Shown in pieces: positions 41,718 through 59,902 of a stretch of 64,000 nt of DNA. The DNA comes from Brevibacterium sp. CS2 (lineage in GTDB: Bacteria; Actinomycetota; Actinomycetes; Actinomycetales; Brevibacteriaceae): NCBI RefSeq assembly GCF_005280295.1, contig NZ_CP040020.1, positions 186,001 through 250,000 on the forward strand. The letters are read 5' to 3'. The notes beneath the pieces are model-generated. The model saw only the letters and a list, made by a program, of their open reading frames with translations, was not told the origin of the DNA and made no database searches. The stretch's first letter is position 1, and each line of letters opens with the position of its first letter. Position numbers and translations under genes: made by a program.

Positions 41718-42220
41718 GCGGTAACCTCCGGGTTCTGCGGATCGTGCGCGGAGGTGAAGACCATGGTCTGGCGGACGGCCTTGGCGACGACCTCGCCGCG
41801 CTGGTTGCGGCCGATGTGTTCGAGGGTGACGATGCCCTGGTTGGGGCGGGACTTCGATTCGCGCTTGTCGAGGATCGTCGTCTCCGCGTAGAGGGTGTCA
41901 CCGTGGAACAGGGGCTTGGGGAATGAGACCTCGGAGAAGCCGAGGTTGCCGACGATCGTGCCCTGCGTGAGCTGGGAGACCGAGAGCCCGACGAGCGTGG
42001 CGAGCGTGAACATCGAGTTGACCAGCCGCTGGCCGAACGGCTCGGTCTCCGCGAAGGCCGCGTCGAGGTGCAGCGCCTGAGTGTTCATGGTCACCGCGGT
42101 GAACCACGTGTTGTCCGCCTCGGTGATGGTGCGGCCCGGCGCGTGCTTGTAGACCGTGCCGACCTCCATCTCGTCGAACCAGAGCCCGCGTTGGGTGATG
42201 GTCTTGGGGGTGTCGCTCAC
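41714..42220 (-). CDS. MaoC-like acyl-CoA hydratase
   Basis: 168 residues of a hot-dog-fold MaoC dehydratase: TVYKHAPGRTITEADNTWFT (hydratase motif), MNTQALHLDAAFAETEPFGQ, LVNSMFTLATLVGLSVSQL and FPKPLFHGDTLYAETTILDK. It matches the MaoC that sits between fadE19 and citE (Rv2499c) in mycobacteria. GTG 42220 has GAGGAGGA about 10 bases upstream. The 137 bases above it are the left boundary of the island; a TTGACT there (minus strand) could be a -35 of a new promoter, without a clear -10. Confidence 0.9.
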   Translation of the reverse strand: MSDTPKTITQRGLWFDEMEVGTVYKHAPGRTITEADNTWFTAVTMNTQALHLDAAFAETEPFGQRLVNSMFTLATLVGLSVSQLTQGTIVGNLGFSEVSFPKPLFHGDTLYAETTILDKRESKSRPNQGIVTLEHIGRNQRGEVVAKAVRQTMVFTSAHDPQNPEVTA

Positions 42221-42357
42221 TTCAGGGTTCCTCCTCGAACCGGGTCCTACCACTTAGGTCGATCGTATCGGGACGAAGTCAAGAAGCAGTCCCGGTCACG
42301 AAACACATCCCCCATTCTGATCATCGAGGTAAGGAAGATCAGAAGCCGCGATTCGCA

Positions 42358-45300
42358 TCACGCCGTAACAAGCTGCATTAGCTCGGTGTAATCGGTCACC
42401 ACGTCGTAGGTGACGTCGTTGCCGTTCTTCTCGCTGAGGGAAGCGAAGAACTTGCGGGCACATTCGATCTTGGCGTCCTCGACGCCCTTGAGCTGGAGCG
42501 TGGACAGCGAGCCCTTGGTCTCTGCGACGAAGTAGACGTGCTTGACGCTGCCCTCGGTGAACGCGATGGCCCAGTCCGGGTTGTAGTCGCCAACGGGCGT
42601 GGGGATGAAGAACCCTCGCGGGAGTTTCGCGTAGACGGCGACCTCGTGGCTGGTGTCGAGTTCGGTGACGAACTCGCGTTCAATCTTGGAGTCGGTGACC
42701 ACGTAGTCGTAGACGTGCTTCTTGAGCTTCGACCCGGCCTTCGAGAAGTCTTGGGCCGTCTGGTTCTCGGTGAAGATCGCGGAGTCGAAGCGGTCTTCGA
42801 GAGCGTCATATGCGAGGTGCTCGACGATGACGGTGGCCTTCTGTTCGTTGATGAGCCGGGCTGCCTCGGTGATGAACTGCTCGGGGTTGAGACGGAACTT
42901 GGCGAACGTTCCTGGCGTGACGCCGCGGAGGATCGCTGCGACCGTGCGACGGGTGAGCTGGGTCTTCTCGGTGATCTCACCCAGCAGGTCGTACTTCACC
43001 TGCGAGCCTGCGCTGACGGTTTCGGTGTGCGTCTGCGTGGTCTGCACCGCGAAGCCGGAGCCGCTGGTCAGGTCGTCCGCCTCCAACTGCTCGCGCTGCT
43101 GGCCGGCTTGCGCGACGTATTGCAGCGCGGCGACATTGAGGTGCTTGTCGAGGTGGTCGATCGCCTTGCGGATCAGTTCACCGGAGTCGAACTCAACCTG
43201 GTAGACGGCGCGGTGGTTGATCCTGCCCCACAGGGCCTGGAACTCCTTGCGAGCAAAGTTGGCCTCGTTCAGCGGTACCTTCTTCGGCTTGCGGTCATCG
43301 GTGGGCACCGGCAGGTCCAGGTAGAGAACGTCAATCAGCGGCCACACGAAGTCGATGACAGGCTTGAGTACCTCAGAGGTCGGAGCGGCGAGTGTCCCGT
43401 CTTCCTTGGCCTGCTTGTAGGCGTCGGAGATGGTGTCGTCGTCGTTCACGTAGTCGTTCTTGACCAGGTACTTGTAGAGCGCCTGGGCGACGGCTTCCTC
43501 GATGACCGACTCACCCGAGAGGGTCTGGATGGTCTTGCCGACGAAGAACTTGACGCTGGCCTTGCGCGGCCGGGCGGCGAGCGACTCGGAGATTTCGCGT
43601 TGGAGGCCGGTCACGAAGTCGGTGTAGGACTCGTCAGTGACGACGGTCAACTCGTTGATGTCGTGCACCGTGACGGGGTTGTCCATCCGCTCCCCGTGCT
43701 GGTCAACGGCCAGCCGGAGCCCGCGCCCGATCTCCTGGCGACGGGAGACGGTGTTGTCGCTCTTCTTGAGCATACCCATGACGAACACGTTGGGGTTATC
43801 CCAGCCCTCGCGCAGCGCCGAGTGGGAGAAGATGAATCGGACGGGTTCGGTGAAGGACAGCAGGCGTTCCTTGTCTTTCAGGATCAGGTCGTAGGCGTCG
43901 GTGTCCGTAGACTGGCCCTTGTCGTCGCCCCGGCCGGAGACCCTGCCGTCGATCTGGTGCTTGGTCTTCTTGTCGATGGAGAAGTAGCCCTCGTGCACCT
44001 GCCGCACGTCGTCGCGGCGCAAGTAGGTCTGGTACTCCTCGGTCGCCGCGTCGATGGCGAGTTCGCCGAGCACCTCGTCACGGATCGCGGCGTACTCCTC
44101 CTCAAACATCCGCGCATAGTCGCCAAGAGTGTCCTCACGGCTGTAGTCGCGGTACTTGGCGACCTCGTCGATGAAGAACAACGAGAGCACCTTAACGCCC
44201 TGGCTGAACAGCTCGCGTTCCTTGTCCAGATGAGCGCGAACGACCTCGCGAATCTGGATGCGTCGCTTGGTCTCCTCGGTGACGTCCCGGTCGGCAAGCT
44301 GCCCAGCCACGACCACATCGCCGTTGCTCAGCTCGATCACGTCCCGGTTCGCGTCAACCTCGGTGATGAACAGCCCCTTGTATGCCTCGATTCCGTTCGA
44401 GACATCATGAAGGTTCGTTCCCACGTCGAGGCGCTTGACCTGTCGCCTGATGCCGGTTACCATCTGCACCTCGATCTCGACCCGCGCGCGTGGCTTGGCG
44501 CCCTTCGCGATCTCGATGGAGTCGAGGTACAGGTAGGCAGTCGATCCAGCGAGACCCTTCACGGTGATGCCCCGCACCGAGATCTTCTTCACCAGCTTCT
44601 GGTTGTAGGCGTCCAGCGCGTCGAGCCGGTGCACCTTGGTGTGATCGACCTTGTGCGTAGCGGAGTACCGCAGCAGCATCAGCGCGTTGAACCGTGACAG
44701 CGCTTCCAGCGACTTGGGCGCTCCGATCTTCTGCGGCTCGTCAATGATCACGATAGGGCGGTTGGCGCTGATGACATCGATCGGACGGCGCGACTGGAAG
44801 TCATCGAGTTCGTCGTAGATGCGGCGGTTGTCCTTACCGGTGGCGTTGAACGCCTGGATGTTGATGATCATCACCTGCACGCCAGCATCGGAGCTGAACC
44901 GCTCCAACTCGTGCAGCTGGGAGGAGTTGTAGATGAACGAGCGCGGCTTGGTGCCGTAGAGCTGCTGGAAGTGCTCGGAAGTCACATCGAACGACTTTTT
45001 CACGCCCTCCCGGATCGCGACCGACGGCACCACAATGATGTACTTCGACCAGCCATACCGCTTGTGCAGCTCCATGATCGTCTTGATGTAGACGTAGGTC
45101 TTACCCGTGCCCGTCTCCATCTCCACGTCAAGGTTCGGTGCGCCGGGAGCGGCGGCGCTGGAGGCGAGCTTGGCCGACAGCGGGAGGTTCCGTGACCGCT
45201 GCACTGCGTGCACGTTCTCCAGCAGTTGCGCTCCCGACAGGACGATCTCAGCGTTGCGCAGACCGGCGTCCGAGCACTCCTCGGCCTCGAACAGTTCCAG

Positions 45301-45435
45301 GTCGGTCACGGGGCGGACTTTGCCAGGGTCGATCCGGTAGGAGATGCCGTCATGCTTCGGTTGCCCGGCGAAGGTCTCGACGACGGCATCGACGGCATCG
45401 GTCTGGTACTGCTGGACCTTGAACTGGAGCTTCAT
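42358..45435 (-). CDS. res: Type III restriction enzyme Res subunit (SF2 helicase-endonuclease)
   Basis: 1025 residues. The helicase has METGTGKTYVYIKTI (Walker A), IVIIDEPQKIG (DExH-like), RYSATH (motif III), then IFSHSALREGWDNPNVFVMG and RRQEIGRGLRLAVDQHGERM (motifs V and VI). The C-terminal PD-(D/E)xK nuclease is readable as GDYNPDWAIAFTEG followed by YFVAETKG. Type III Res cuts only with its Mod partner and translocates on DNA between two head-to-head sites. It is last in the operon. Its GC content is visibly lower than the flanking metabolic genes. ATG 45435 has only a weak AAAGA site. Confidence 0.94.
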   Translation of the reverse strand: MKLQFKVQQYQTDAVDAVVETFAGQPKHDGISYRIDPGKVRPVTDLELFEAEECSDAGLRNAEIVLSGAQLLENVHAVQRSRNLPLSAKLASSAAAPGAPNLDVEMETGTGKTYVYIKTIMELHKRYGWSKYIIVVPSVAIREGVKKSFDVTSEHFQQLYGTKPRSFIYNSSQLHELERFSSDAGVQVMIINIQAFNATGKDNRRIYDELDDFQSRRPIDVISANRPIVIIDEPQKIGAPKSLEALSRFNALMLLRYSATHKVDHTKVHRLDALDAYNQKLVKKISVRGITVKGLAGSTAYLYLDSIEIAKGAKPRARVEIEVQMVTGIRRQVKRLDVGTNLHDVSNGIEAYKGLFITEVDANRDVIELSNGDVVVAGQLADRDVTEETKRRIQIREVVRAHLDKERELFSQGVKVLSLFFIDEVAKYRDYSREDTLGDYARMFEEEYAAIRDEVLGELAIDAATEEYQTYLRRDDVRQVHEGYFSIDKKTKHQIDGRVSGRGDDKGQSTDTDAYDLILKDKERLLSFTEPVRFIFSHSALREGWDNPNVFVMGMLKKSDNTVSRRQEIGRGLRLAVDQHGERMDNPVTVHDINELTVVTDESYTDFVTGLQREISESLAARPRKASVKFFVGKTIQTLSGESVIEEAVAQALYKYLVKNDYVNDDDTISDAYKQAKEDGTLAAPTSEVLKPVIDFVWPLIDVLYLDLPVPTDDRKPKKVPLNEANFARKEFQALWGRINHRAVYQVEFDSGELIRKAIDHLDKHLNVAALQYVAQAGQQREQLEADDLTSGSGFAVQTTQTHTETVSAGSQVKYDLLGEITEKTQLTRRTVAAILRGVTPGTFAKFRLNPEQFITEAARLINEQKATVIVEHLAYDALEDRFDSAIFTENQTAQDFSKAGSKLKKHVYDYVVTDSKIEREFVTELDTSHEVAVYAKLPRGFFIPTPVGDYNPDWAIAFTEGSVKHVYFVAETKGSLSTLQLKGVEDAKIECARKFFASLSEKNGNDVTYDVVTDYTELMQLVTA

Positions 45436-45511
45436 CGAGTGTCTTTCTTTCTGCAATCGGCGCTGTTCGTCGTCGCTGCTAGAGGGATGCGGGCGTTGTG
45501 GATGCCTGTGC

Positions 45512-47257
45512 TCACGCTGATCCCGGCCCTCTTGCGTCGTCACTGTCGCCGTCATCCTTCTTGCCAGCGGGCTCAGACGGTACGCCTTCGTCGCCTGCGT
45601 AAGAAAGCTCCCATCGTGGCTTCGTGCGGGTGCCGCGGTTGACGATGACGCCGTGGCGGCGCAGCTTGGTCAGGAGGTTCGTGATCTTGGTTGTCTTCTG
45701 CTGCTCGGTGAGCGCTTCGCTGAGCGCTGGCCGGAGCAGCACCTCTACGTCACCACGGTCTGCGTGTCCTTGCGCGCGGAGGAAGTCGGTGAGGAGCGTG
45801 GCGTAGTGCGCGTCGGCCTGGGGCCGGGTGCGGATATAGTCGGCCATCGCCCCGGTCGCCGCTGCGACGCGAGGAGTGATCCGGCGGTGGGGCTTCCGGC
45901 CTTCGATCAACCCGACTCTGCGCAGGTGGCGGGCGGCCTTCTCACTGATGTCGAGTCCCTTCTGAACGCGGTCCAGCGCAAGTACGTCTTCGAGCGGGAG
46001 ATCGGTGCGGACCATGAGCAGCTGAGAGTACGACTCATCGATCACCGCGCCCGGGATTGTGAGCTTCACCTCGCCGGTGGTGCTGAGGTCGTAGTCGGGC
46101 AGCGGTAGGAAACGACGCACCTGGTCCTGCACCATCCGGTGGATTCCGTAGCCCATCTGGTCGATGAGGTTCAGCTCAGTCATCGCCTCGACGAGGAACG
46201 GGTTGCGATACTGGCGCGGGGTGCGCTCGTCCAGCGCGTAGTCGTCGGGTGTGCCGTCGAAGAACTCGCCCACACTCTCGAAGACGATGCGGTCGGCGTG
46301 CTCGGTGACGATGATCCGAGAGTTTCGCGTGTAGTCCTGGTGCGCGATGCAGTTGTAGAGCGCTTCGAGCAGGCTGCGTTCGTCGTACTTGCTGATCTCT
46401 CGATAGATCAGCTCGTCAGGCGGCAGAAGTCGAAGCTGCACGTTACGGATACGCTTCGCCAGCGCCGTGGTGTTCAGCAAGAACGGCAGCCGGAAGTGCT
46501 CGTTTGCCCGCTGCTCGCCAACCAGCTTCCAAGTCATCTGCGCAGGGTGCGGACTTAACTGATGCGTCGAGGTGTCGGCGCCGAGCAGGAGGAGTGCAGC
46601 CCGCGTGATCTGGTCATCACGGGTCAACCGTGCTTTAGACAGGAACGTCGCGTCGTCCCATGCCTCAATGTCGCCGGCAGGGATACGGGACGCGTACCGT
46701 TCGGTGAACCCTTGACGTGCGCGGGCGATCGCTGCCGGATCGAGGTCAGCGAGCGTGGCGTCAGCAACGACGACAGCCGACCAGTCCGCACTGATGGTCT
46801 GTCGGCGGATCTCATCCAGTTTGTCCAGCGACAGCGGCACCAGGCTCTCGCCTGCGCGAGCGCGGTAGTCGCCCTTCCACGAGATCGGGATGCCGCGGGG
46901 CGCCGCCGGCACCTCCAGAAGCACCACGCGCTTGCCCGAGTGAATGACCTCGTAGACCTCGCGGACTGTCAGCCCCTGGTCGATCGACTGGTGGATGTGA
47001 TGCTTCAACGTCTGATGCTGCTGTACTTCGAAGAGATGCGTCGTGCCGACCACCTGCCGAGCGTTCGAGACCCCGAAGACGAGCCACCCCGAGGCGAGTC
47101 CGCGCAGGTTCGCTTCGTTGCTCAGCGCCGAGACGTACTCACCGGTCTTGTCCGCAGAGAACTGACGAGCAGCCTCCTTGAACTCGACAACCTCGTTCTC
47201 CCAACCGGCCAACAGTCGGTCGAGGAATTCGGTGAGTTCGTCGTTCGTCAAGGTCAT
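45512..47257 (-). CDS. AlbA_2 (Schlafen-like) domain ATP-binding protein
   Basis: 581 residues. The N-terminal AlbA_2 domain reads ENEVVEFKEAARQFSADKTG, then LSNEANLRGLASGWLVFGVS. The middle is a GHKL-type ATPase half: LLEALYNCIAHQDYTRNSRI and TEHADRIVFESVGEFFDG, then LVEAMTELNLIDQMGYGIHR. Winged-helix segments follow (GLDISEKAARHLRRVGLIEG), and the C-terminus is charged. Such proteins are called transcriptional regulators or putative helicases and are frequent beside restriction genes. Inserted between mod1 (8-base gap) and res, so probably a working member of the operon. Role unknown: regulator, or an added effector/sensor. Confidence 0.88.
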   Translation of the reverse strand: MTLTNDELTEFLDRLLAGWENEVVEFKEAARQFSADKTGEYVSALSNEANLRGLASGWLVFGVSNARQVVGTTHLFEVQQHQTLKHHIHQSIDQGLTVREVYEVIHSGKRVVLLEVPAAPRGIPISWKGDYRARAGESLVPLSLDKLDEIRRQTISADWSAVVVADATLADLDPAAIARARQGFTERYASRIPAGDIEAWDDATFLSKARLTRDDQITRAALLLLGADTSTHQLSPHPAQMTWKLVGEQRANEHFRLPFLLNTTALAKRIRNVQLRLLPPDELIYREISKYDERSLLEALYNCIAHQDYTRNSRIIVTEHADRIVFESVGEFFDGTPDDYALDERTPRQYRNPFLVEAMTELNLIDQMGYGIHRMVQDQVRRFLPLPDYDLSTTGEVKLTIPGAVIDESYSQLLMVRTDLPLEDVLALDRVQKGLDISEKAARHLRRVGLIEGRKPHRRITPRVAAATGAMADYIRTRPQADAHYATLLTDFLRAQGHADRGDVEVLLRPALSEALTEQQKTTKITNLLTKLRRHGVIVNRGTRTKPRWELSYAGDEGVPSEPAGKKDDGDSDDARGPGSA

Positions 47258-47265
47258 GTCGTTCC

Positions 47266-49239
47266 TCAGATCGTCCTTACCTCGGTCGCGGGCGACATCT
47301 CACGGAACACCTGCTCAGCATTGATGCGCGCGGCATCGGATTCGAAGGCATCGTCGCGGAAGACGGCGCGCAGCGGGCCACGTTCGGCGATAGCTCGCAC
47401 GACATCCGGAGACACAGACTCCGCGAAGCAGGCGATCAACGCGTCGTCGTCAACTGCGAACACCTCGCGGGCATCGACCTCGGCGCGTGTGATCTGTACT
47501 GACGGTTCGAGTCCCCAGTCGAGCAACACTTGGAACAGCAGGTCTTCTCCAGACCGGCCAGCCTTGATACTCGCTTCCAGCGAGTCAAGTCCGAGTTGAT
47601 CTGTATCAACCGCCGTTCTCAGAACATCGGCCTTGTTGCTATCATCGATACGCAGCGCGCGGAAGCCGACATCAAGGTCGGAACCGAGGAGCCCCACCTC
47701 TTCCTTCACTTGCGCTCCGGCCCGACGCAGGCGCTCGCGGGCGACGTCGGCAAGACTCGTAAATCCGCGCCTGCCCCCAGTCGATCCTGGGTCGAGACTT
47801 TCGTCGAGTTGCACCAGGATGAAACGTCGATTGCCGCGGTCGGCAGCGTTGAGGTTCATGATGGCGTGCCCGGTCGATCCTGAACCCGCGAAGAAGTCGA
47901 GGATGATCGCGTTCTTGTCGCTGCTCGTCACGGCGTCGACCCAGGTTCCAAGGACCCCAACATCCTTCGGGTAATCGAACATCTTGCCGTCAAGTAGCCT
48001 CGTCAACGCGTCGCTCGCTGGGGCACGCTCCTGGGTGACGACTGGGCGGATCGCTTGCTGTCCCATCTCGTCGAGGAACCGCTTGTAACGTGGGGTTGTC
48101 TGGTGATCGGGACCGAACTGGATCCGGCCCTCGGCGATACTCGCTTCCATGGACTCTTTGGACAGCCGCCACCCGTTCGGGTGCATCGGGACCGGCACTC
48201 CCGTCGTTGGGTGCGGAAGGTCATACATGAGGTTTGCCCGCGGGTTCGGACTCGCGAGATCACTCTTCGTAAACGCTCTGCCCGAGTCGTCGATCTCGTT
48301 GTAGGCCCGCAGGCCAGCCTCAGCATCGGGCTTCGTCCGCCACCAGTCGCGAAACAGTCCGGTGGCTCGTGAAGCATCGTGCCCCGACTCTTCCCAGGCC
48401 CTGCGTCCCGCCTCCATGACTTCGTCGTAACCGCGCTTCGGCCCTTTGAAGCGCACGTCAAGCCCGATCAGCGCGGCCTTGCTCCGCGCGTAGATGAGCA
48501 TGTAATCAAGGCCGCCTGCCGTGAACCGCGCATCGTTTTTACCCGACCCTTGCCACACCACATCGGCCAGGAAGTTATCGGCCCCAAAGACCATGTCGAG
48601 CAGCGACCGCAGGTTCGCATGCTCGTGGTCATCGATCGCGACGATCATGACTCCGTCATCGGTCAGAAGGTTCCTCGCCAGGCGAAGCCGCGGATACATC
48701 ATGCTCAGCCAATCGGAGTGGAACCGCCCGTTGGCCTCGGTATTGGCAACGAGGCGAGCGCCCGTCTCAGATTTCTGTCCCGAACGGGCGAGGTAGTCGG
48801 CGCTCGACTCCGCAAAGTCGTCCTCGTAGACGAAATCGTTTCCAGTGTTGTACGGCGGATCGATGTAGACCACCTTGACCTTGCCGAGATAGGACTCCTG
48901 AAGCAGCTTGAGCGCTTCAAGATTGTCGCCCTCGATGAAGAGGTTCATCGTTGTGTCGAAGTCCACTGAGTCCTCGCGCACGGGACGCAAGGTCTTGGCG
49001 ATCGGTGCGCTGGCGGCGAAGGCGGCGGCGCGCTTGCCAGGCCAGTCGAGCTGGTAGCGCTCCTGTGGCCCCTCGACTACGTGGTCGGAGAGCTCTTGTC
49101 GGAGCAGATCGAAGTCAACGGCGAGGGTCAAGTTGCCCTCCGCGTCTCGCGATTCGGTGATGACCTGCGGGAACAGGTCGGCGATTCGCTCGATGTTTCG
49201 AGCGGTGAGGTCGGGTGTGTGCAGGGTGCGCTTCTCCAT
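47266..49239 (-). CDS. mod: Type III DNA methyltransferase Mod1 (beta class)
   Basis: About 657 residues, intact. Motif IV is VVYIDPPYNTGNDFVYEDDF, near residue 130; motif I is ILDFFAGSGSTGHAIMNL, near residue 445. This IV-before-I order is the beta class of type III Mod proteins, N6-adenine methyltransferases. The ends closely match Mod2, while the middle (roughly 195-430, the target-recognition region) is unrelated: ADVVWQGSGKNDARFTAGGL here. The end TEVRTI is the normal Mod C-terminus. ATG 49239 (or GTG 49242) lies 27 bases after the in-frame end that Mod2 would have. Confidence 0.94.
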   Translation of the reverse strand: MEKRTLHTPDLTARNIERIADLFPQVITESRDAEGNLTLAVDFDLLRQELSDHVVEGPQERYQLDWPGKRAAAFAASAPIAKTLRPVREDSVDFDTTMNLFIEGDNLEALKLLQESYLGKVKVVYIDPPYNTGNDFVYEDDFAESSADYLARSGQKSETGARLVANTEANGRFHSDWLSMMYPRLRLARNLLTDDGVMIVAIDDHEHANLRSLLDMVFGADNFLADVVWQGSGKNDARFTAGGLDYMLIYARSKAALIGLDVRFKGPKRGYDEVMEAGRRAWEESGHDASRATGLFRDWWRTKPDAEAGLRAYNEIDDSGRAFTKSDLASPNPRANLMYDLPHPTTGVPVPMHPNGWRLSKESMEASIAEGRIQFGPDHQTTPRYKRFLDEMGQQAIRPVVTQERAPASDALTRLLDGKMFDYPKDVGVLGTWVDAVTSSDKNAIILDFFAGSGSTGHAIMNLNAADRGNRRFILVQLDESLDPGSTGGRRGFTSLADVARERLRRAGAQVKEEVGLLGSDLDVGFRALRIDDSNKADVLRTAVDTDQLGLDSLEASIKAGRSGEDLLFQVLLDWGLEPSVQITRAEVDAREVFAVDDDALIACFAESVSPDVVRAIAERGPLRAVFRDDAFESDAARINAEQVFREMSPATEVRTI

Positions 49240-49266
49240 CACGCGCCACCGACCAGCGAGCGACGG

Positions 49267-51148
49267 TCATATGGTCTTGACCTCAGTGTGTGGCGAGCAT
49301 TCACTGAACACCTGCCCGACGTTGATGCGCTCCGCGTCGTCCGCGAAGTCTTCGTCGAAGAACACGACACGTAGCGGCTGACGCTCCGCGATGGCTGCGG
49401 CAGCCCGAGAGAGAGAGGGAGAGAGAGGAATCGCGCGCCTCACGCGGACGTGTGCACAGGATCAACGCACCCTCCTCAACGTCGTACACCTCAAAGCCAT
49501 CAGCAGTCTCCTTCTGGATCGGCATCGTGAGTTCCAAGCCCCAGTCGAGAAGGACCTGGAACAGGAGGTCTTCGCTTGTGCGGCCAGGTTTCACGCTGCC
49601 GACAACGTCGAGCAGGGATGTCTGCACGAGCTCGTCGGCGGTAATGGATGTGTCGGCCAGGTTCGTTGTATCCACACGGAGCGCTCTGAACCCAACATCA
49701 ACCCGGTCTTGGAGAACGCCGGCGTCGCTCTTGAGCTTGAGGCCCGCGCGACGGATGCGCTCTCGACTGATCTCGGAGACCACGCCGTACCCATTCTGTG
49801 CTGCCGTGGAACCCTGGCTCACCACTTCATCGAGCTGAACCACAATGAAGCGGCGCGTGCCGCCATCAATGGCATTCGCGGCCAATACGGCATGCGCGGT
49901 GGTTGCCGATCCTGCGAAGAAGTCCATGACGATCGAGTCCTTGACGCTCGCAAGTCCGATGATCCGTTGGAGGAGAGAGACTGGCTTGACGGTGTCGAAG
50001 ACCGCATCTCCGAACAGGTCCAGGATTGCCTTTTTACCCTCTTTGTTCGAGCCGGTCGTATCCCAGTAGTTCGTCGTCGGCTGCCCTTGGCCTTCGTGCG
50101 CGTACATCACTCGCTGAGGAACACCGGCTCCATTTGCACCCCAGTAGAGTCGCCCCGACAAAGCCAGTCTCTCGAAGCTCTCGCGGGGATAGGCCCATGT
50201 TCTGGAAATCTCGTCACCGGACGGGGTCACGACCGAGTAGACGTATCCGCCGCCCTTCAGCCCCTTGGAAACCGTAATAGGTACCCCTCGCCAACGTCCT
50301 TCCGGAAACTCGGAGGTCGGGTCGCGATACGACGCAGCAACGTAATCCTCGGCCAGGGGCTCAAGTGCGAGGGCTCCCTCCACTGAGCGCGCGTAAACAA
50401 GAATGAACTCACCCTGGATCGCGACGTTCTTGGAGTCATTCGACGTTTCGCGCTTGCGACGCCACATGATCGTTGTGACGTAGCTCGGGGTCCCGAAGAC
50501 CTCATCACAGATGTGACGCAAGGCGGCTTGTTCGCCTTCGTCGATGCTGATGAATATGAATCCATCGGAAGAGAGCAAGTTCCGCGCCAACCTCAACCTC
50601 GGGTACATCATCGATAGCCAATCCGAGTGGAAGCGCCCGTTCGACTCCGGGTTCGCCACGAGCCGTTCACCTGATGCGAGTGTCTGCCCAGAACGCTCCA
50701 GGTAGTCGACGTTCGACTCGGCGAAGTCGTCCTCGTAGACGAAGTCGTTGCCAGTGTTGTACGGAGGGTCGATATAGATCAGCTTCACCTTGCCGAGGTA
50801 CGACTCCTGGAGCAGCTTGAGTGCATCCAGGTTGTCGCCTTCGATGAAGAGGTTCTTCGTGGTGTCGAAGTCGACCGACTCCTCCCGCACGGGGCGAAGG
50901 GTCTTCGCGATCGGAGCGTTCGCAGCGAAAGCGGCGGCACGCTTGCCGGGCCAGTCGAGCCGGTACCGTTCCTGCGGACCCTCCACGATGTGGTCGCTGA
51001 GTTCCTGGCGCAGCAGGTCGAAGTCGACCGCTCGCACGGAGTTGCCGTCGGCGTCGGAGCTCTCGGTGACGACGTTGGGGAACAGATCAGCGATCTTGTC
51101 AATGTTGGCCCGCGTGAGGTCGGGCGATGTCATGCGTAGTCTCTCCAC
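49267..51148 (-). pseudogene. mod: Type III DNA methyltransferase Mod2, out of frame at a GA repeat (phase-variable?)
   Basis: The frame from GTG 51148 gives IDPPYNTGNDFVYEDDF (motif IV), its own middle region (VTTIMWRRKRETSNDSKNVA) and IVMDFFAGSATTAHAVLAAN (motif I), then the C-terminal module to EEGALILC. After that the GA tract at 49407-49428 shifts the frame: it runs LSLSLSGCRSHRG to a stop at 49301. The other frame continues with IAERQPLRVVFFDEDF, NVGQVFSECSPHTEVKTI and TGA at 49267, matching the Mod1 end. One more dinucleotide, or two fewer, would restore it. About 43 conserved residues are lost in the present state. It starts 3 bases after the DUF4391 stop. ATG 51133 is an alternative start, but alignment with Mod1 favours 51148. 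Confidence 0.9.
49407..49428. repeat. GA-dinucleotide tract inside mod2
   Basis: On the plus strand the tract is (GA)5, GG, (GA)4, GG; on the coding strand it is a CT repeat read as Ser-Leu. It lies exactly where the frame breaks in mod2. The homologous stretch of mod1 has no repeat and is about 25 bases shorter. Confidence 0.95.
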
Positions 51149-51151
51149 GGG

Positions 51152-51817
51152 TTACCTCTGCTGTTCCAGTTCGTGTTGCTTCGTCTTGAGTGTGCGGCGG
51201 AGCTCGACCTTGCGGTTGAGCTGTGGTTCGGTACGGAGCTTGCGCTCCAAGGACGCGACCTCACGTTCGAGCTTGCGCACCGTGGCCAGTCTGTCGGCGA
51301 CGTCTGACATCTCCTCGCCCGGGCGCGCTGTGATCGGGGTCAGCGGTTGCAGGAGCGCAGCGTAGAGCGCCGGCAAGGTGATCGCCGTCGGCAGGGCTTG
51401 CCGCAGGGTGTCCTCTGGCTGCCAACCGGTCGGGTAGTAAGGGCTGAGCTTCGGCGTTCCGGCCCCGAGCTGCTTGTGCGCCGCGACCATCCGAGCCTCG
51501 GGCTGATCGGCGCGGTGGCGCGCGATCTCGAAGATAATCGGGAACGGAATGGCCTTGTCGATGGCGCCCAGGACGGCTTCGCTGACGTCGTCAGTCTTGG
51601 CGTCGATCGTGAAGACCTGTATTTCCGGCACCGTCGGCACTCCGGGCAGGTTGATCGTGGCCTCGGCGAGTTTGTAAGCCCAGGTGATGCGTTGGACTTC
51701 GGCGATGAACTTCTCACGGATTGCGGTACTGACGGTGCCGTGCTCGTAGAACTTCTCTTTGGGCACTCGTCTGCCGAACTTCGCTGCCTCGGGCCACCGG
51801 TAGAGGACGTCAGTCAT
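51152..51817 (-). CDS. DUF4391 protein of the restriction operon
   Basis: 221 residues: FYEHGTVSTAIREKFIAEVQ, ITWAYKLAEATINLPGVPTV, EIQVFTIDAKTDDVSEAVLG, AIPFPIIFEIARHR, then a C-terminal coiled coil (VADRLATVRKLEREVASLER to HELEQQR). This is the DUF4391 pattern; these proteins occur beside SNF2-type helicases and type III mod genes, and their function is unknown. The start overlaps the helicase stop by 8 bases and mod2 follows after 3. The coiled coil suggests a bridging or adaptor part (inference). Confidence 0.85.
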   Translation of the reverse strand: MTDVLYRWPEAAKFGRRVPKEKFYEHGTVSTAIREKFIAEVQRITWAYKLAEATINLPGVPTVPEIQVFTIDAKTDDVSEAVLGAIDKAIPFPIIFEIARHRADQPEARMVAAHKQLGAGTPKLSPYYPTGWQPEDTLRQALPTAITLPALYAALLQPLTPITARPGEEMSDVADRLATVRKLEREVASLERKLRTEPQLNRKVELRRTLKTKQHELEQQR

Positions 51818-54800
51818 CGGCGCCGCCCTCGGTGGGGTCTACGACGGCGATGAACGCGGTCAGCTCGAAGTCATCGAGTCCCGCGATGGTGTGGGTGAGG
51901 GCGGTGGTGCCGCCCCCGGTGAAGAGGCTGTCGATGTCGCGTTCCTCGGTGACGTCGATCATGGAGTGGATCGCGTCGGTGAGGAGCGCTGAGTACTTGC
52001 CCATCTGTACGCCCTCATTGGTTGCGGTGTTGAATGCGTGGACGACGTCGGTGACGGGTTCCTCGTATGGACGGCATCCGACGCGGAGGAGGTCGAGGAG
52101 GTGCTTCGCTTCGGTGTGGTTCGCGATGACTTCACCCTGGTCGTCGAGGTAGATGAGGTAGTGCGGGTGGAGCCGGTTGCCGCGGTTGCCGGAACCCTCT
52201 GAGAACGGGGTCTCGTCGGGGGTGAGGTTCCGGAGGGCGAAGATGACGCCGGGTCGCAGCCCCTTGCTAGGGTCTGCGGGGATCACGGCGTGGAGGCCGC
52301 GGGGTGCGGTGTCGAGGTCGCCGTGTTCCTTGATGTAGCCGAGTAGGTCCATGCGGAAGTCGTTGAGTCCGAGGTCGGTGATCGAGACTCCCGTACGGAC
52401 GTCTTCCAGCTCGATGACCTCATCTTGAAGTTTGCGTAGCTGCTCCTTGCGGAAAGCTGCGTCAGAGTCTTCGAGGGTGAGGACGTTGTCGTCGGCGGTG
52501 CTGGCGAGGTCCGCTATGACCATACGATTCTCGACACGTTCCTTGAGGTTGATGTACTCGTCGAGAGAGATGTCTGGCCAGAAGTTCACGAGTTGAATCT
52601 GGCTATTGGTGGAGCCGATGCGGTCAATGCGCCCGAAGCGCTGGATGATGCGCACGGGGTTCCAGTGGATATCGTAGTTGATCAGATAGTCACAGTCTTG
52701 GAGGTTCTGCCCCTCACTGATTACGTCGGTGCCGATAAGCACGTCCAGTTCGCGCGTCTCGCGTGGCATCGTAAGGTGGCGTTGCTTGGAGCGTGGCGAG
52801 AATACCGACATGACCTGTTGGAAGTCGAAGCCTGTTCCCAGGGTCGTTTTCGTTCCGTGGCTTCCACCGGTGATCACTGCCGAGCCCAGTCCGGCGGCAG
52901 CGAGGTCTGGAGCGAGTTCCCTGTAGAGGTAATCAGCGGTGTCGGCAAAGGCTGAGAATACGATCACCTTGCGGTTGCCGTCATTGATTGGGCGCTGAGC
53001 CTTGTCTTCGATGAGCTGTTTGAGCTTGCGTAGCTTGAGGTCGCGGTCAGGCGTGACCTTGCCCATCTCATCGAGAAGCTCTCGAAGAGTTTCGCGATCG
53101 TTCCACAAGTCGCGTTGCCAGGATTCGATATCGAGGTCACCGAGGTCGATCTTGATCTTCTCACCAAAGAACAATGCCTCGATGTTCGCGTCGTCTTCGT
53201 CATCGCCATCAAAGTCGAGCCCGTCGAGGTCTGGACTCAGTTCGGCGAGGTTGCCAGCATGATTGCTGATGCGCCCGAGCGTGTGAGTGACGGAGTTTTC
53301 GATCTTCGCCAGGGTGAGGCGGAATGCATCGATTGAACTCTCCAGCCGCTTGAGCAAATTCACTGTCATGAGCTTCTTCAAGCCCTGCTCACGTCCTGCC
53401 TGACCGAGATTGGACCGAGCGTTGCCTGCGGTGACGTTGTAGATGTCTTCGTACTTGGAGCGCCGACTCGGGAATACGTACGCGAGCGGGGTGTAAACAG
53501 CGAGGGTCAGCTCCTGTAGCTGTTCAAAGATGTCTTTGAATCCGGGCGCGTCCGGCAGGTCGGTGAGCGGCTCACGGATCGAGAGCGGAGGGCGCCGCTC
53601 GGGAAAGGCACCGACTTCAGTCGTGTCGTAAAAAGCTTGAATATGCTTCCGTGACCGGGCGATGGTTACCGAGTCGAGCAGTTCGAAGAAGTCGAAGTCG
53701 AGCATCTGAAGGATGCGCTCGGTCGTACGATGATCAGCGTCGAGCTTGGACCACTCATTGAATACTCGCTGAGCATCGGCAAAAGCTTTCTCGATCGTAG
53801 TGGACAGGCTCAGGTGCTGAGCGAGATTGCCTGACTCGCCCTCGTAGGCAAGCTGGAGCTGGTTCTTGAGGTCATTGAACCGGTTGTTCACAGGCGTTGC
53901 CGAAAGCATCAGCACCTTGGTCTTCACACCCTCGCGAATCACTTGGCGCATGAGACGCTGGTAGCGCGATTCCTTTTCCACGGCATAGTCGGCGTTGCGA
54001 AAGTTGTGGGACTCGTCGATCACGACGAGGTCGTAATTGCCCCAATTGATCCGATCCAAACGCAGGCCGAGGGACTCGCCCTTGGTACGGGAGAGATCAG
54101 TATGAGCGAGCACGTCGTAGTTGAAGCGGTCAGAAGCGAAGATGTTGGTCGTAAGGTTGGCATTGTAGTTCGTCCAGTTCTCGGCGAGCTTCTTCGGGCA
54201 CAGCACGAGCACTGACTTGTTGCGCAGCTCGTAGTATTTGATGACAGCGAGCGCAGTGAACGTCTTGCCGAGGCCGACTGAGTCCGCGAGAATGCACCCG
54301 TTGTAAGTCTCCAGCTTATTTATGATGCCTGTGGCAGCATCGCGCTGGAAGTTGTACAGGCTCTGCCAGACCTTTGTCTCTTGGTAGCCGGTGCGATCGT
54401 TCGGCAACACGTCCTCGTTGATGTCGTCGAGGAACTCTGCGAACAGGTTGTAGAGGATCAAGAAGTAGATGCGGGCCGGAGAATTCTCGGCGTAAACGCT
54501 GGCGATGTAGTCGTAAACGGCCTGCGTGACGTCGCTGACCTGCTCGGGGTTATGCCAAATCTGGTCGAACAGCCGCATGTATTGCTCGGTCATCGGGGCT
54601 TCGTCGAGCCTGTTCACGAAGCTCGAGACGGCGTTGCCACTTTCGTAACCGAGATCAGCAGTGGTGAACCCCTGGAGCTGGGTATACGCAGTCGTGTCAT
54701 CGATCACCGCAAACTGCTGCATTGGGTTGCCTGTCGCGTTCGAGCGGAACGTGACCTTGCGGCGCACCCAGTCTGCACACTCCCGCGCGATCGCACGCTG

Positions 54801-55100
54801 GGTGAGCTTGTTGCGCAACCTGATCTCGAACTCTGACCCTGCAAGGCTCGACTCGGCCTGACCGCTGGGGATGAAGAATTCGCGGCGTTCCTTGCGGAGT
54901 TTGTCAGTCACTTTCTCGGTCACAAATGACGGGGACGTGAAGATGAACTCCAGTTCGGAAACTTTTTCCAGTTCCTTGCGAAGTGATTCGAAGGCGAAGA
55001 TGGAGAATGTCGATGCGGCAATGCGCAACTTCGAACCTGGCGCAATCTCGGCCTTGAGATCGTCGCCCAGGAGGTCGCTGACGTTGTTAATAATCCACAC
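51810..55100 (-). CDS. PLD-like/SNF2 helicase of the restriction operon
   Basis: 1096 residues. The N-terminal 150 residues look like a phospholipase-D-type fold (SKLRIAASTFSIFAFESLRK, LEFIFTSPSF), though no clear HKD motif is seen. The SNF2 motor has LADSVGLGKTFTALAVIKYY (I), YDLVVIDESHNFRN (II), VLMLSATPVNNRFNDL (III), KVIVFSAFADTADYLYREL (IV) and VLIGTDVISEGQNLQDCDYL to RIIQRFGRIDRIGS (V-VI). The C-terminus is unassigned. Not a usual part of type III systems; it recalls the helicases of DISARM and other multi-gene defences. GTG 55100 is weakly supported (TAGG 8 bases upstream). First gene of the operon. Confidence 0.9.
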   Translation of the reverse strand: MWIINNVSDLLGDDLKAEIAPGSKLRIAASTFSIFAFESLRKELEKVSELEFIFTSPSFVTEKVTDKLRKERREFFIPSGQAESSLAGSEFEIRLRNKLTQRAIARECADWVRRKVTFRSNATGNPMQQFAVIDDTTAYTQLQGFTTADLGYESGNAVSSFVNRLDEAPMTEQYMRLFDQIWHNPEQVSDVTQAVYDYIASVYAENSPARIYFLILYNLFAEFLDDINEDVLPNDRTGYQETKVWQSLYNFQRDAATGIINKLETYNGCILADSVGLGKTFTALAVIKYYELRNKSVLVLCPKKLAENWTNYNANLTTNIFASDRFNYDVLAHTDLSRTKGESLGLRLDRINWGNYDLVVIDESHNFRNADYAVEKESRYQRLMRQVIREGVKTKVLMLSATPVNNRFNDLKNQLQLAYEGESGNLAQHLSLSTTIEKAFADAQRVFNEWSKLDADHRTTERILQMLDFDFFELLDSVTIARSRKHIQAFYDTTEVGAFPERRPPLSIREPLTDLPDAPGFKDIFEQLQELTLAVYTPLAYVFPSRRSKYEDIYNVTAGNARSNLGQAGREQGLKKLMTVNLLKRLESSIDAFRLTLAKIENSVTHTLGRISNHAGNLAELSPDLDGLDFDGDDEDDANIEALFFGEKIKIDLGDLDIESWQRDLWNDRETLRELLDEMGKVTPDRDLKLRKLKQLIEDKAQRPINDGNRKVIVFSAFADTADYLYRELAPDLAAAGLGSAVITGGSHGTKTTLGTGFDFQQVMSVFSPRSKQRHLTMPRETRELDVLIGTDVISEGQNLQDCDYLINYDIHWNPVRIIQRFGRIDRIGSTNSQIQLVNFWPDISLDEYINLKERVENRMVIADLASTADDNVLTLEDSDAAFRKEQLRKLQDEVIELEDVRTGVSITDLGLNDFRMDLLGYIKEHGDLDTAPRGLHAVIPADPSKGLRPGVIFALRNLTPDETPFSEGSGNRGNRLHPHYLIYLDDQGEVIANHTEAKHLLDLLRVGCRPYEEPVTDVVHAFNTATNEGVQMGKYSALLTDAIHSMIDVTEERDIDSLFTGGGTTALTHTIAGLDDFELTAFIAVVDPTEGGADD

Positions 55101-55111
55101 GAGATACCTAG

Positions 55112-55360
55112 CATCCTCCCCTGATTAATGGCTCAAGCGAACGAATACTCACAATGATACTGGCGGTAGTACGACTGGGACTGATGCGCAACTCCGGACC
55201 GCCACCGGAGACCACGGTGCTGCGGGAAACCATAGGAGTCTTCGGCTGGTCCCGAATGGGGCGGAACATTCGGGAACCGCTGGAGGACGTGGTCGGCTGG
55301 GCTGTAGAGGCGGAGCGGATCTCCATGAACGAGAACGGGGAGTACTTCGTAGAGAAGTAG
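55112..55360 (+). pseudogene. Remnant resembling the C-terminus of a DUF3320-type helicase/ATPase
   Basis: An open frame with no good start reads ILAVVRLGLMRNSG, then VLRETIGVFGWSRMGRNIRE, PLEDVVGWAVEAERISMNEN and GEYFVEK before TAG. This fits, from memory, the winged-helix-like DUF3320 end of large Walker-type helicases (fG-x-x-R-x-G-x-x-I...; G-x-y). It faces the defence operon and has no upstream body, so it looks like the scar of another, lost defence gene. The 372-base gap 55101-55472 holds this and the next remnant only. Confidence 0.45.
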
Positions 55361-55371
55361 TGACCGTTGCG

Positions 55372-55454
55372 CTCGTTCCCGCACGATGAGCATGCCCTGT
55401 TCATGGTCCGTCCCCTCGCCGACTCGGAGGATCATGTCGCGGCATTGAGCAACC
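55372..55454 (-). pseudogene. Remnant of an acyl-CoA dehydrogenase 3' end
   Basis: On the minus strand this reads VAQCRDMILRVGEGTDHEQG, then MLIVRE. It aligns with the C-terminus of the intact dehydrogenase at 58724 (YRDSKILEVGEGTTEV, MLIARE), and the DNA is also similar (CGATGAGCATG, CGTCCCCTC, GAGGATC, GTCGCGG shared in order). It lies just after the TRAP dctQ stop in the same orientation. A second dehydrogenase gene seems to have been lost here, or a duplicate of the end was left behind by recombination. Confidence 0.5.
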
Positions 55455-55472
55455 CTGACCGACCTGCGACCC

Positions 55473-56027
55473 CTAAAGCCCGCTCGGCTCGCCTTCAACC
55501 GCACCTTCAGCAACGTCGACGGTGAACTCCGCACGATCCCGTTGCAGGTTGACCGCGAAGACGAAGCACAGCTCGATGAGCAACAGGAGGAATCCCAGCG
55601 GCACCAGCAGCTGCGCCGGCCATTGTGGCAGCAGTGAGATGCCGGCGAGGAACGACGACCCGGCGGCAAGGTTCCAGATCGCGAAGCCGGTCGTCGCGAC
55701 GAGCACGATGGCGATCACCACGATCTCGACGCCCACGATCACCATGACGGTGCGATTTCGGGCGCCGTCCGACAGCCTCGGCAGCAAGAGGTCCATGTTC
55801 GGCATGACTCCGGACGCACTCACCCATGCAAGGGCTGGGAACACGATGACCGGGAGGAGGTAGTTCTGGACGATCTCGAAGTTGCCGGGGATCGAGATTC
55901 CGACGACGTTGCGCAGCAGGACGTCTCCGACGATGAAGAGCATGAGGACGAAGACGCCGATTCCGCTGATGATCGCGCCGATGCGCTCGATCGTCTGGAA
56001 CTTGCGGTAGCTGTTGAGCATGTTCAT
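55473..56027 (-). CDS. TRAP transporter small permease (DctQ)
   Basis: 184 residues with four membrane segments: AIISGIGVFVLMLFIVGDVL (followed by LRNVVG, the usual DctQ sequence), YLLPVIVFPALAWVSASGVM, MVIVGVEIVVIAIVLVATTG and LLVPLGFLLLLIELCFVFAV. It couples the binding protein to the large permease. GAGGAGA precedes ATG 56027, 16 bases after the dctM stop. Confidence 0.9.
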   Translation of the reverse strand: MNMLNSYRKFQTIERIGAIISGIGVFVLMLFIVGDVLLRNVVGISIPGNFEIVQNYLLPVIVFPALAWVSASGVMPNMDLLLPRLSDGARNRTVMVIVGVEIVVIAIVLVATTGFAIWNLAAGSSFLAGISLLPQWPAQLLVPLGFLLLLIELCFVFAVNLQRDRAEFTVDVAEGAVEGEPSGL

Positions 56028-56043
56028 ATTCGGTCTCCTCGCT

Positions 56044-57354
56044 TCAGCCGGCCGTCGATGGGATGAACGTGACCAGTGACGGGAACAGGATGAGCAGGAC
56101 GCTCAGCACCACGGTGGTGATCAGGGCGATCCAGATCGCGTACCGGAAGATCGGGCCGGCGGACATTCCGCTGGAGCCTGCGACGGAGAACACGCTCAGT
56201 CCGATCGGCGGCGAGATCGTACCCACGGTGCACAGCAGCGAGATGAATACGCCGAACCAGAGCATGTCGATCTGCGACTCCTGGATCAGCGGCAGCACGA
56301 TCGGCACCGTCATGAGGATGACGGCCGCTCCCTCGAGGAACATGAAGAGCACGAAGAACACGAGTGCGAGCACCAGGAGCAGGAGCACCGGGTTGTCCAC
56401 CAGCGGTCCCAAGGCGTCGATGAGCACGCGCGGGAGCAGCGACAGCGATACGAACTTGCTGAACACCTGAGCCGCGACGATGATCAGCAGCACCATGGTG
56501 GAGATCTTCACGGTCTCCAGCAGGGACGTCCGCAGGAACTGCCAGTTGACCTTGCCCAGCAGCAGCGCCGCGACGAATGCCGCGAGCGCTCCGACTGCTC
56601 CGGCTTCGGTCGGAGTGAACCAGCCAAGGTAGATGCCGCCGAAGATGATGAGCACGATCACACCGCCGGAGACGAGCGAGACCGTCGTGCGCCTGACCCC
56701 GATCGGCTCGGCCACGTACGGCTGGCGCGGAGTCGTGCGTTTGCGCTCATCGATGAGATAGCACCCGATGACCACGACGATGTAGACGACCACCGTGGCG
56801 ATGCCGGGGATGATCGCCCCCATGAAGAGGTCGCCGATGGCGGTTTCGGTGGCGACGCCGTAGATGATGAGGATGATGCTCGGCGGGATGATGCCGGCTA
56901 GCGAACCCGCCGCAGCAGCCGTGGCACCGGCCAACGGTGCCGACATGCCGTACCGGGTGAGTTCCGGGATCGCCACCCGGCCCAGCGCCGCCGAGGTGGC
57001 CGAGGCCGAGCCGGACACCGCACCGAGGAGACCGCCGGCAGTCAGGGTCAGCGAGCTCAGGGGCTCAGCACGGCCGCGCGAGAGTCGGCTGACGATGCCG
57101 AAGATGTCCTTGACGATTCCTGCCTGCAGCACGAACTGCGCCATGAGGACGAACAGCGGGATCGTGCTCAATGAATACGAGGCCACGCGGATGAACGGCT
57201 GCGGCCCGACGAGACCCATGATGGAGCCGGGCCCATCGAGGAGCACGAAGCCGACGATGCCCACGGCCAGCAGAACGATGTGGATCCGCACGCCGAAGAC
57301 CAACCCGGCAACGAAGATGACGAGAGCGATTGCAATGACGAGTCCGGTTGCCAT
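56044..57354 (-). CDS. TRAP transporter large permease (DctM)
   Basis: 436 residues with about twelve membrane segments, the Na+-dependent channel subunit. Typical DctM sequences: TIPLFVLMAQFVLQAGIVKD, SASATSAALGRVAIPELTRY, AAAGSLAGIIPPSIILIIYG and LLCTVGTISPPIGLSVFSVA (near the C-terminus). Starts 1 base after the dctP stop. TRAP systems carry organic acids; the cargo is not readable here, but the setting in an acyl-CoA pathway suggests a carboxylate. Confidence 0.94.
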   Translation of the reverse strand: MATGLVIAIALVIFVAGLVFGVRIHIVLLAVGIVGFVLLDGPGSIMGLVGPQPFIRVASYSLSTIPLFVLMAQFVLQAGIVKDIFGIVSRLSRGRAEPLSSLTLTAGGLLGAVSGSASATSAALGRVAIPELTRYGMSAPLAGATAAAAGSLAGIIPPSIILIIYGVATETAIGDLFMGAIIPGIATVVVYIVVVIGCYLIDERKRTTPRQPYVAEPIGVRRTTVSLVSGGVIVLIIFGGIYLGWFTPTEAGAVGALAAFVAALLLGKVNWQFLRTSLLETVKISTMVLLIIVAAQVFSKFVSLSLLPRVLIDALGPLVDNPVLLLLVLALVFFVLFMFLEGAAVILMTVPIVLPLIQESQIDMLWFGVFISLLCTVGTISPPIGLSVFSVAGSSGMSAGPIFRYAIWIALITTVVLSVLLILFPSLVTFIPSTAG

Positions 57355-57355
57355 G

Positions 57356-58465
57356 TCAGCCCTCCCCGTTCTCGAGGATGCCGTCGGGCACCTCGCCGCC
57401 CGCGTCGATGATCGCCTGGCGCCATTCCTCTGCGGCTTCGCGGCCGGGGAGTCCCTGTTCTTCGAGCATGGCCGTCCATTCGTCCCAGGTGGTCACGACA
57501 GAGCCTTCCAGCTGTTCGCGCACCTCGGGCGGGAGCGTCGAGATGTCGATGAACTCACCTCCGGCTTCGGTCTCGTTATACTCTTTCGTCGCAGTCCCCT
57601 GGTCCTTCCAAACGGTAGAGGCGTCGACGTAGGTGTCCTCGATGGCGGTCTCCATGATCGTACGGACCTCCGGATCGAGCGAGTTCCACTTCTCCTCGGT
57701 CATCATGAGATTGAGATTGAAGTGGCCGAAGTTCATCCCCGTCAGGGTGGTCTGATAGAGGTCCTGGAGCCCGTAGTTGGGCCAGTCGGCGACCGAGGCG
57801 AAACCGCCGTCGATGGTCCCGCGGCTCAGCGCATCGAATGCCTCCGCGTTCGGGATCGACACAGTGCTGCCGCTGAAGGCGTCCGTGGTAATGTTCTGGA
57901 CTCGTGAGGCCGCGCGGAGTTTGAGTGATTTCAGCTCCGCAACACTGGACATGTCGCTGCCGGTCGTCGCGATGGAGTACTCGCCTGTCGTGTGCAGCGG
58001 GATCGCTTTGAGTCCCTTGGACCCGAACTGCCACTCGTGGAAGGTCATGCCGTCGTAGACCTCGGCGTCACTCTCGACGAAGTTCTTCCACGCTTCAGAG
58101 CCGACGACTGCGTCGGACTGCTTGAGCGGCAGCATCGAGACCTCGACGAGCGGGTACTGGTCGGGCTGATAGGTCGGCAGGAACAGTGCGATGTCGATGA
58201 CGTCGGTCTGCAGCGCGTGCGTCTCACCCTTGAGCTCGACGAGCTCGCCACCGGTGAATGACTGGAAGGTCACCGCGCCGCCGGTCGCCTTCTCGACCTC
58301 TTCCATCCACGGGACGACTCCTTCGGTCCACGCGAGGTTCTGGCTGCTGAGGCCGGAGGCGACGCGGAGGACCAGCGGGTCGGATTCGGCTTCCGCAGAG
58401 CAGCCGGCGACGAGCACCAGCGATGACAACGCGGCGATAGCCGAGGCGACGAGACGACGTCTCAT
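57356..58465 (-). CDS. TRAP transporter solute-binding lipoprotein (DctP)
   Basis: 369 residues. A lipoprotein signal (MRRRLVASAIAALSSLVLVAGC, lipobox LVAGC, cysteine at 22) anchors it outside the membrane, as expected in a Gram-positive. Family features include GGAVTFQSFTGGELVELKGE, SLKLRAASRVQNITTDAF (ligand-binding Arg) and IPNAEAFDALSRGTIDGGFA. GAGGAGG lies upstream of ATG 58465. dctP-dctM-dctQ form one operon, probably driven from the palindrome-rich region at 58466-58723. Confidence 0.93.
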   Translation of the reverse strand: MRRRLVASAIAALSSLVLVAGCSAEAESDPLVLRVASGLSSQNLAWTEGVVPWMEEVEKATGGAVTFQSFTGGELVELKGETHALQTDVIDIALFLPTYQPDQYPLVEVSMLPLKQSDAVVGSEAWKNFVESDAEVYDGMTFHEWQFGSKGLKAIPLHTTGEYSIATTGSDMSSVAELKSLKLRAASRVQNITTDAFSGSTVSIPNAEAFDALSRGTIDGGFASVADWPNYGLQDLYQTTLTGMNFGHFNLNLMMTEEKWNSLDPEVRTIMETAIEDTYVDASTVWKDQGTATKEYNETEAGGEFIDISTLPPEVREQLEGSVVTTWDEWTAMLEEQGLPGREAAEEWRQAIIDAGGEVPDGILENGEG

Positions 58466-58723: not shown

Positions 58724-59902
58724 TCACCCCACCCCCAGCTCCCGGGCGATGAGCATGAGCTGCACCTCGGTCGTCCCCTCCCCCACTTCGAGGATCTTCG
58801 AGTCGCGGTAGTGGCGGGCGACGAGGTACTCGTTCATGAAGCCGTAGCCGCCGTGGATCTGCGTGGCATCCCGCGCATTGTCCATCGCGGCGTCGCCGGC
58901 GACGAGCTTGGCGATCGAGGCCTCCTTCTTGAACGGCAGGCCCGCGAGCATCCGCGACGCCGCCAGGTAGTACGCCGCACGCGCCGCCACCACACGGGCC
59001 TCCATGCGAGCCAGCTTGAACGAGATCCCCTGGTACTCCCCGATAGGCCTCCCGAAGGACCTCCGTTCGTTCGCGTACCGCACCGATTCGTCCACGCACC
59101 CCTGCGCGGCCCCCACGGAGAGTGCTGCCACCGCGATGCGGCCCTCGTCGAGGATGCGGAGGAAGTTCGCGTACCCGCGGCCCCGCTCCCCCAGGAGGTT
59201 CTCCTCCGGCACCTGCACACCATCGAACGTCAGCGGGTGCGTGTCCGAGGAGTTCCAGCCGACCTTGTCGTACGCCGGCTCCACGGTGAACCCGGGAGTG
59301 CCGGACGGGATCATGATCGTCGAGATCTCCGGCTTCTCCACCCCGTCCTTGCCGGTCCGGGTGCCGGTCACCGCGGTGGCGGTGACGAGCCGGGTGATGT
59401 CGGTCCCGGAGTTCGTGATGAAGCACTTGCCGCCGTTGACCGTCCACATGCCGTCCTCGAGCACGGCCCGGGTCTTCGTGCCGCCGGCATCGGAGCCGGC
59501 CTCGGGTTCGGTGAGGCCGAAGGCCGCCAGGCCGGAGCCGTCGGTGAGCTGGGGCAGCCATTCGCGCTTCTGCTCCTCGGTGCCGAACCGGTGGATGGGC
59601 ATCGCGCCCAGCGACACCCCGGCCTCGAGCGTGATCGCGAGCGACTGGTTGACCCGCGCGATCTCCTCGATCGCCAGGCACAGCGCGAAGTAGTCCCCGC
59701 CCATCCCGCCGTGCTCCTCCGCGAACGGCAGGCCGAACAGGCCCATCTGCCCCATCTTCGCCACGAGCTCATAGGGGAATTCGTGCTTGGCGTCGAGCTC
59801 CGCGCTCACCGGCGCGACGTCGTCATCGGTGAACTTCGCGACGCTCTTCCGCAGCGATTCGTACTCGTCGGGGAGCATTCCGGGGGTGAAGGTCGTGGTC
59901 AT
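58724..59902 (-). CDS. Acyl-CoA dehydrogenase (isovaleryl/branched-chain type, FadE19-like)
   Basis: 392 residues. AAFGLTEPEAGSDAGGTKTR and the FAD loop WTVNGGKCFITNSGTDI are the family signatures, with AYDKVGWNSSDTHPLTFDGV, EYQGISFKLARMEARVVAAR and the C-terminal DATQIHGGYGFMNEYLVARH YRDSKILEVGEGT. It makes the alpha,beta-enoyl-CoA for the carboxylase in leucine breakdown (by synteny with fadE19, Rv2500c). ATGA overlaps the carboxylase alpha stop. Downstream the conserved partners maoC-citE are replaced by the TRAP operon and the island. Confidence 0.92.
   Translation of the reverse strand: MTTTFTPGMLPDEYESLRKSVAKFTDDDVAPVSAELDAKHEFPYELVAKMGQMGLFGLPFAEEHGGMGGDYFALCLAIEEIARVNQSLAITLEAGVSLGAMPIHRFGTEEQKREWLPQLTDGSGLAAFGLTEPEAGSDAGGTKTRAVLEDGMWTVNGGKCFITNSGTDITRLVTATAVTGTRTGKDGVEKPEISTIMIPSGTPGFTVEPAYDKVGWNSSDTHPLTFDGVQVPEENLLGERGRGYANFLRILDEGRIAVAALSVGAAQGCVDESVRYANERRSFGRPIGEYQGISFKLARMEARVVAARAAYYLAASRMLAGLPFKKEASIAKLVAGDAAMDNARDATQIHGGYGFMNEYLVARHYRDSKILEVGEGTTEVQLMLIARELGVG

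What the first reader, a model, noticed from the sequence alone, without database searches (positions are those of the whole stretch)
55372..55454. Relic of a second acyl-CoA dehydrogenase at the island boundary
A 28-residue minus-strand stretch (RVGEGTD, MLIVRE) mirrors the dehydrogenase C-terminus 3.3 kb away, with DNA-level similarity. It marks a recombination or deletion point between the TRAP operon and the restriction operon, showing the region was built in more than one step.
Basis: partly seen in the sequence, partly recalled or inferred. Interest (0 to 1): 0.6.

Follow-up and report, generated by a model that had tools for sequence, protein, structure and literature searches.

The report
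Decayed tail of a neighbouring gene
A short stretch of DNA between two imported gene clusters is a worn-out copy of the end of a nearby metabolic gene, beside the leftover end of a vanished helicase gene; together they suggest the region was assembled in steps, which is an ordinary kind of genome scar.

Summary
On the minus strand, 55377-55447 aligns with 58740-58813, the 3' end of the acyl-CoA dehydrogenase gene (ACAD): 0 of 20,000 shuffles reached the score, and in 785 kb of real sequence all 40 non-self matches scoring 20 or more lay at ACAD 3' ends. The copy is dead: mismatches fall 4/7/7 on codon positions 1/2/3, against 451/240/3136 in 528 pairs of working orthologues. It scores twice as high against the neighbouring ACAD as against any other ACAD tail of the genome, so that gene's own tail is the simplest parent; no second dehydrogenase is needed. 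About 70 bases cannot settle local against foreign origin. The scar also holds an unreported plus-strand relic, the C-terminal tail of a DUF3320 helicase (55160-55363). The type III restriction module ends at 55099-55104 as in two other genomes, the TRAP operon sits elsewhere in three Brevibacterium genomes, and the ACAD-maoC interval varies across the genus. Stepwise assembly is supported. This is an ordinary recombination scar of low interest.

The parts
55377..55447 (-).
   Evidence: Local alignment with 58740-58813, score 32, 0 of 20,000 shuffles; matches 33 of 33 ACAD tails tested at the same place; mismatches 4/7/7 by codon position
55160..55363 (+). C-terminal tail of a DUF3320-type helicase, with its stop codons; rest of the gene gone
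   Evidence: Alignment to DUF3320 proteins of two genus relatives: scores 90 and 103, shuffle maxima 46 and 57 of 500 each; two further DUF3320 loci gave no alignment; Pfam DUF3320 only E 0.16 over 12 residues
55101..55472 (.). Scar between the restriction module and the TRAP operon, 372 bp, GC 0.599
   Evidence: Module edges, composition
42358..55100 (-). Type III restriction-modification module: Res, AlbA-like (label by eye), two Mod, DUF4391, SNF2-type helicase
   Evidence: PADLOC and Pfam matches; edges shared with G022 and G029
55473..58465 (-). TRAP transporter operon dctP-dctM-dctQ
   Evidence: Pfam DctQ 6.6e-12, DctM 9.3e-67, DctP 5.9e-24
58724..59902 (-). Intact acyl-CoA dehydrogenase (fadE19-like position in a branched-chain catabolic operon); likely parent of the relic
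   Evidence: Pfam ACAD domains; one close match at E<=1e-100 in 46 of 59 genomes, own included
40881..42253 (-). maoC-like hydratase and citE-like lyase, downstream part of the split operon
   Evidence: Gene order ACAD-maoC-citE in relatives; NCBIfam RipB/RipC-like below cut-off

Best explanation
The stretch is a dead duplicate of the last ~25 codons of the resident ACAD gene, lying in the same orientation on the far side of the TRAP operon, so TRAP is bracketed by two imperfect copies of the ACAD tail. Inferred origin: TRAP DNA was joined at or near the end of ACAD by recombination anchored in ACAD on one side, while the other end was joined without homology inside or next to the old ACAD tail. 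The displaced tail then decayed under no selection. The neighbouring DUF3320-helicase tail and the restriction module mark at least one further join. Shown: the relic, its lack of constraint, the helicase tail, the module edges and the variable interval. Inferred: the order of events and the recombination route.
For: Specific DNA match to the ACAD tail. Best own-genome parent is the adjacent ACAD, 32 against 16 for the next. Same orientation, flanking TRAP. Mismatches spread 4/7/7, binomial p 6e-5 against the 82% third-position share of working genes; the pairs are related, so this p is rough. Relic differs from the own ACAD at 18 sites, tied for fewest among 33 tails. TRAP and restriction modules occur elsewhere in relatives. 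Interval length 965-21,432 bp in 30 genomes including the window and an outgroup.
Against: Two other species' tails (L031, L032) tie with the own gene at 18 differences, and one ACAD tail from another genus matches with a better E-value (7.1e-6 against 4.3e-5), so a donor copy is possible. No repeat of 9 or more bases was found between the scar and the flanks, and no genome was seen with TRAP directly after this ACAD. The gap between relic core and helicase tail is only 13 bases, and no stop codon of the relic is recognisable.
Confidence: 0.6

Rival explanations
1. The relic is the tail of a second, foreign ACAD that arrived with TRAP, the helicase or the restriction module and was then deleted down to its end.
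For: An ACAD tail in another genus (G568) matches at E 7.1e-6, slightly better than the own gene; at sites where the own gene departs from the genus majority the relic follows the own gene at 3 and the majority at 3 (read by eye).
Against: No ACAD beside dctQ in the 3 Brevibacterium TRAP loci; of 45 TRAP loci, 11 had any ACAD-like match within the fetched flanks, all 26-30% identical, and none matched the relic; a foreign copy should carry more third-position differences than 7 of 24 (inference).
Confidence: 0.3
2. A site-specific integrative element entered the 3' end of ACAD, rebuilding the gene and leaving the displaced end as the far attachment site.
For: Position at a gene 3' end with the gene intact and a tail copy on the far side of the insert.
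Against: No integrase among the genes that fill 42358-58465; no identical attachment-like repeat; no such tail copy downstream of the ACAD in 29 of 32 relatives, and the 3 weak hits look unrelated.
Confidence: 0.06
3. Chance similarity of GC-rich, codon-biased DNA.
For: The reverse query finds an unrelated segment at score 28.
Against: 0 of 20,000 shuffles, window-wide maximum 27 of 150; relic query finds only ACAD tails, 40 of 40 chunks.
Confidence: 0.03

Closest known systems
Homology-facilitated illegitimate recombination (PMC3240628; abstract and outline read)
   Same: One homologous anchor (ACAD) and one non-homologous join would give the bracketed layout seen here.
   Different: Never observed here; no donor arrangement found, and the join is too eroded to test for microhomology.
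fadE19 of the mycobacterial accD1-accA1-fadE19-Rv2499c-citE operon (PMC3920632; passages read)
   Same: The intact ACAD here has the same gene order: carboxyltransferase, biotin carboxylase, ACAD, hydratase, lyase.
   Different: In M. smegmatis fadE19 and the hydratase are 8 bp apart and cotranscribed; here 16.5 kb of other DNA separates them.
DUF3320-domain helicases (Pfam PF11784)
   Same: Tail of about 58 residues aligns, including FGWSRMG.
   Different: Only the C-terminal tail remains; Pfam score is below cut-off.

Membership tests
Acyl-CoA dehydrogenase gene (PF00441) | Sequence homology to the ACAD C-terminus | tested here: met
Acyl-CoA dehydrogenase gene (PF00441) | Full-length open frame with ACAD domains | tested here: not met
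   Only about 25 codons, one of them lost; 0 Pfam families for the 44-aa reading
Acyl-CoA dehydrogenase gene (PF00441) | Selection on codons | tested here: not met
   4/7/7 mismatches
Homology-facilitated illegitimate recombination scar | Duplicated homologous anchor bracketing the insert | tested here: met
Homology-facilitated illegitimate recombination scar | Short microhomology at the non-homologous join | tested here: inconclusive
   No shared run of 9 or more between scar and right flank; exact join eroded
Site-specific integrative element | Integrase gene | tested here: not met
   None among genes in 42358-58465
DUF3320 helicase | DUF3320 domain above gathering score | tested here: not met
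   12.4 bits against 25; homology to tails shown by pairwise alignment instead

The most novel reading that the evidence does not exclude
The spot after this ACAD is a recurrent entry site in Brevibacterium at which incoming DNA repeatedly recombines in the conserved ACAD 3' end, swapping tails; the relic would be a fossil of one such event that inserted a TRAP operon and split a catabolic operon.
Probability: 0.15. Interest if true: 0.35.

Novelty: new member of a known kind. Interest (0 to 1): 0.13.

Why it matters
It gives a small fixed marker for how a transporter and a restriction module were added to a conserved operon, and shows that a gene-tail relic can be told from chance and from a working gene by codon-position decay. 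It does not change any general view.

Tried and rejected
Chance similarity: rejected by shuffles and real-sequence control. tRNA or known RNA at the site: no tRNA in the window and no Rfam family at gathering score in 45-64 kb. ACAD linked to TRAP in other genomes: not found as a close relative. Helicase tail by distant search: the hits over the phylum looked like antisense or unrelated frames and were dropped, plasmid and phage searches gave none, and the order-wide DNA search gave one 33-base hit in an unrelated frame. The DUF3320 proteins of the genus settled it for 2 of 4 loci; the other 2 (L167, L169) did not align in the frame my script took. Helicase next to ACAD in relatives: in G013 the DUF3320 genes lie on other contigs than the ACAD, and in G015 over 300 kb from it. 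Whole-window tblastx was too noisy to use. The first comparison with own ACADs used one strand only and was redone. Literature: 3 searches; none of the listings showed a report of this scar, but I did not search for it by name.

Full report
What is there. The window is bases 186001-250000 of a 3.24 Mb single-contig genome. It is a Brevibacterium by inference: same-genus genomes G002, G014 and G030 have TRAP contigs whose lengths equal those of named Brevibacterium records. From left to right: maoC-like and citE-like genes (40881-42253), a type III restriction module (42358-55100), a 372-bp scar (55101-55472), a TRAP operon (55473-58465), then the intact ACAD (58724-59902) followed by biotin carboxylase and carboxyltransferase genes, all genes on the minus strand.

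The ACAD relic. The minus strand reads QCRDMILRVGEGTDHEQGMLIVRER where the intact gene reads HYRDSKILEVGEGTTEVQLMLIARE. BLAST in the window gives 57 bases at 75%, E 1.4e-7. The relic matches the same place in 33 of 33 ACAD tails (own plus 32 relatives). In 785,149 bases of real sequence all 40 non-self chunks scoring 20 or more are ACAD tails. Against the tails of the 25 own-genome PF00441 matches the neighbour scores 32 and the next 16.

It is dead. Over 24 comparable codons the relic differs from the own gene at 4, 7 and 7 first, second and third positions. In 528 pairs among the 33 working tails the figures are 451, 240 and 3136. One codon is missing inside the alignment and no stop is recognisable.

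Local or foreign? The own tail and two other species' tails (L031, L032) tie at 18 differences; the other 30 have 19-26. In the order, 15 of 396 genomes (own included) match at E 0.001 or better; the best, G568 of another genus, is slightly better than the own gene. Position, orientation and the low third-position count favour a local copy, but about 70 bases cannot decide.

A second relic. The plus strand at 55160-55357 encodes the last 58-66 residues of a protein and ends in two stop codons. These align with the C-termini of DUF3320 helicase-like proteins of G013 (score 90, shuffle maximum 46) and G015 (103, maximum 57), 0 of 500 shuffles each; two other DUF3320 loci gave no alignment. Pfam alone gives only E 0.16. 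That these are helicases is recalled, not tested. So two gene tails face each other inside the scar, 13 bases apart.

Module histories. The SNF2-type helicase of the restriction module has matches at E 1e-100 or better in 3 of 57 genus genomes, own included. In G022 and G029 similarity stops at 55099 and 55104 on the right and starts at 42368 and 42357 on the left. dctQ matches at E 1e-10 or better in 6 of 59 genomes, own included; three relatives have 58-60% identity, and there TRAP is on another contig than the ACAD and has no ACAD beside dctQ. GC is 0.61 (restriction), 0.64 (TRAP) and 0.70-0.71 (flanking operon).

The site. In relatives the order carboxyltransferase-carboxylase-ACAD-(insert)-maoC-citE holds, with an interval of 965-21,432 bp in the 30 genomes measured (29 plus the window; one of them an outgroup); relatives with maoC on another contig or not located were left out. 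In M. smegmatis the equivalent genes are 8 bp apart and cotranscribed (PMC3920632, passages). The ACAD-maoC interval is thus a variable spot in this genus.

Verdict. The claim of a second dehydrogenase is unnecessary, though not excluded. The kind of thing, a gene-tail relic at a recombination join, is common (recalled). The recombination route (PMC3240628, abstract) is inference.

Noticed in passing
49301-51148 (-), tract near 49407-49430: The second mod gene of the type III module loses its frame in an imperfect CT-rich tract, and the usual C-terminus follows in another frame; either a broken gene or a candidate phase-variable methyltransferase.
   Followed up: partly
47266-51148 (-): Two tandem type III mod genes, about 47% identical, where the related modules in G022 and G029 appear to have one.
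   Followed up: partly
42253-58724: 16.5 kb of other genes split an operon that in M. smegmatis is one transcript.
   Followed up: partly
L076 and L163 (G017), ACAD-maoC interval: A 21 kb interval whose first 7 kb has few convincing genes and low third-position GC.
   Followed up: no
L031 about 8850, and similar places in other relatives: A segment of the cardiolipin-synthase-like gene after ACAD resembles the ACAD tail (score up to 28); probably coincidence.
   Followed up: no
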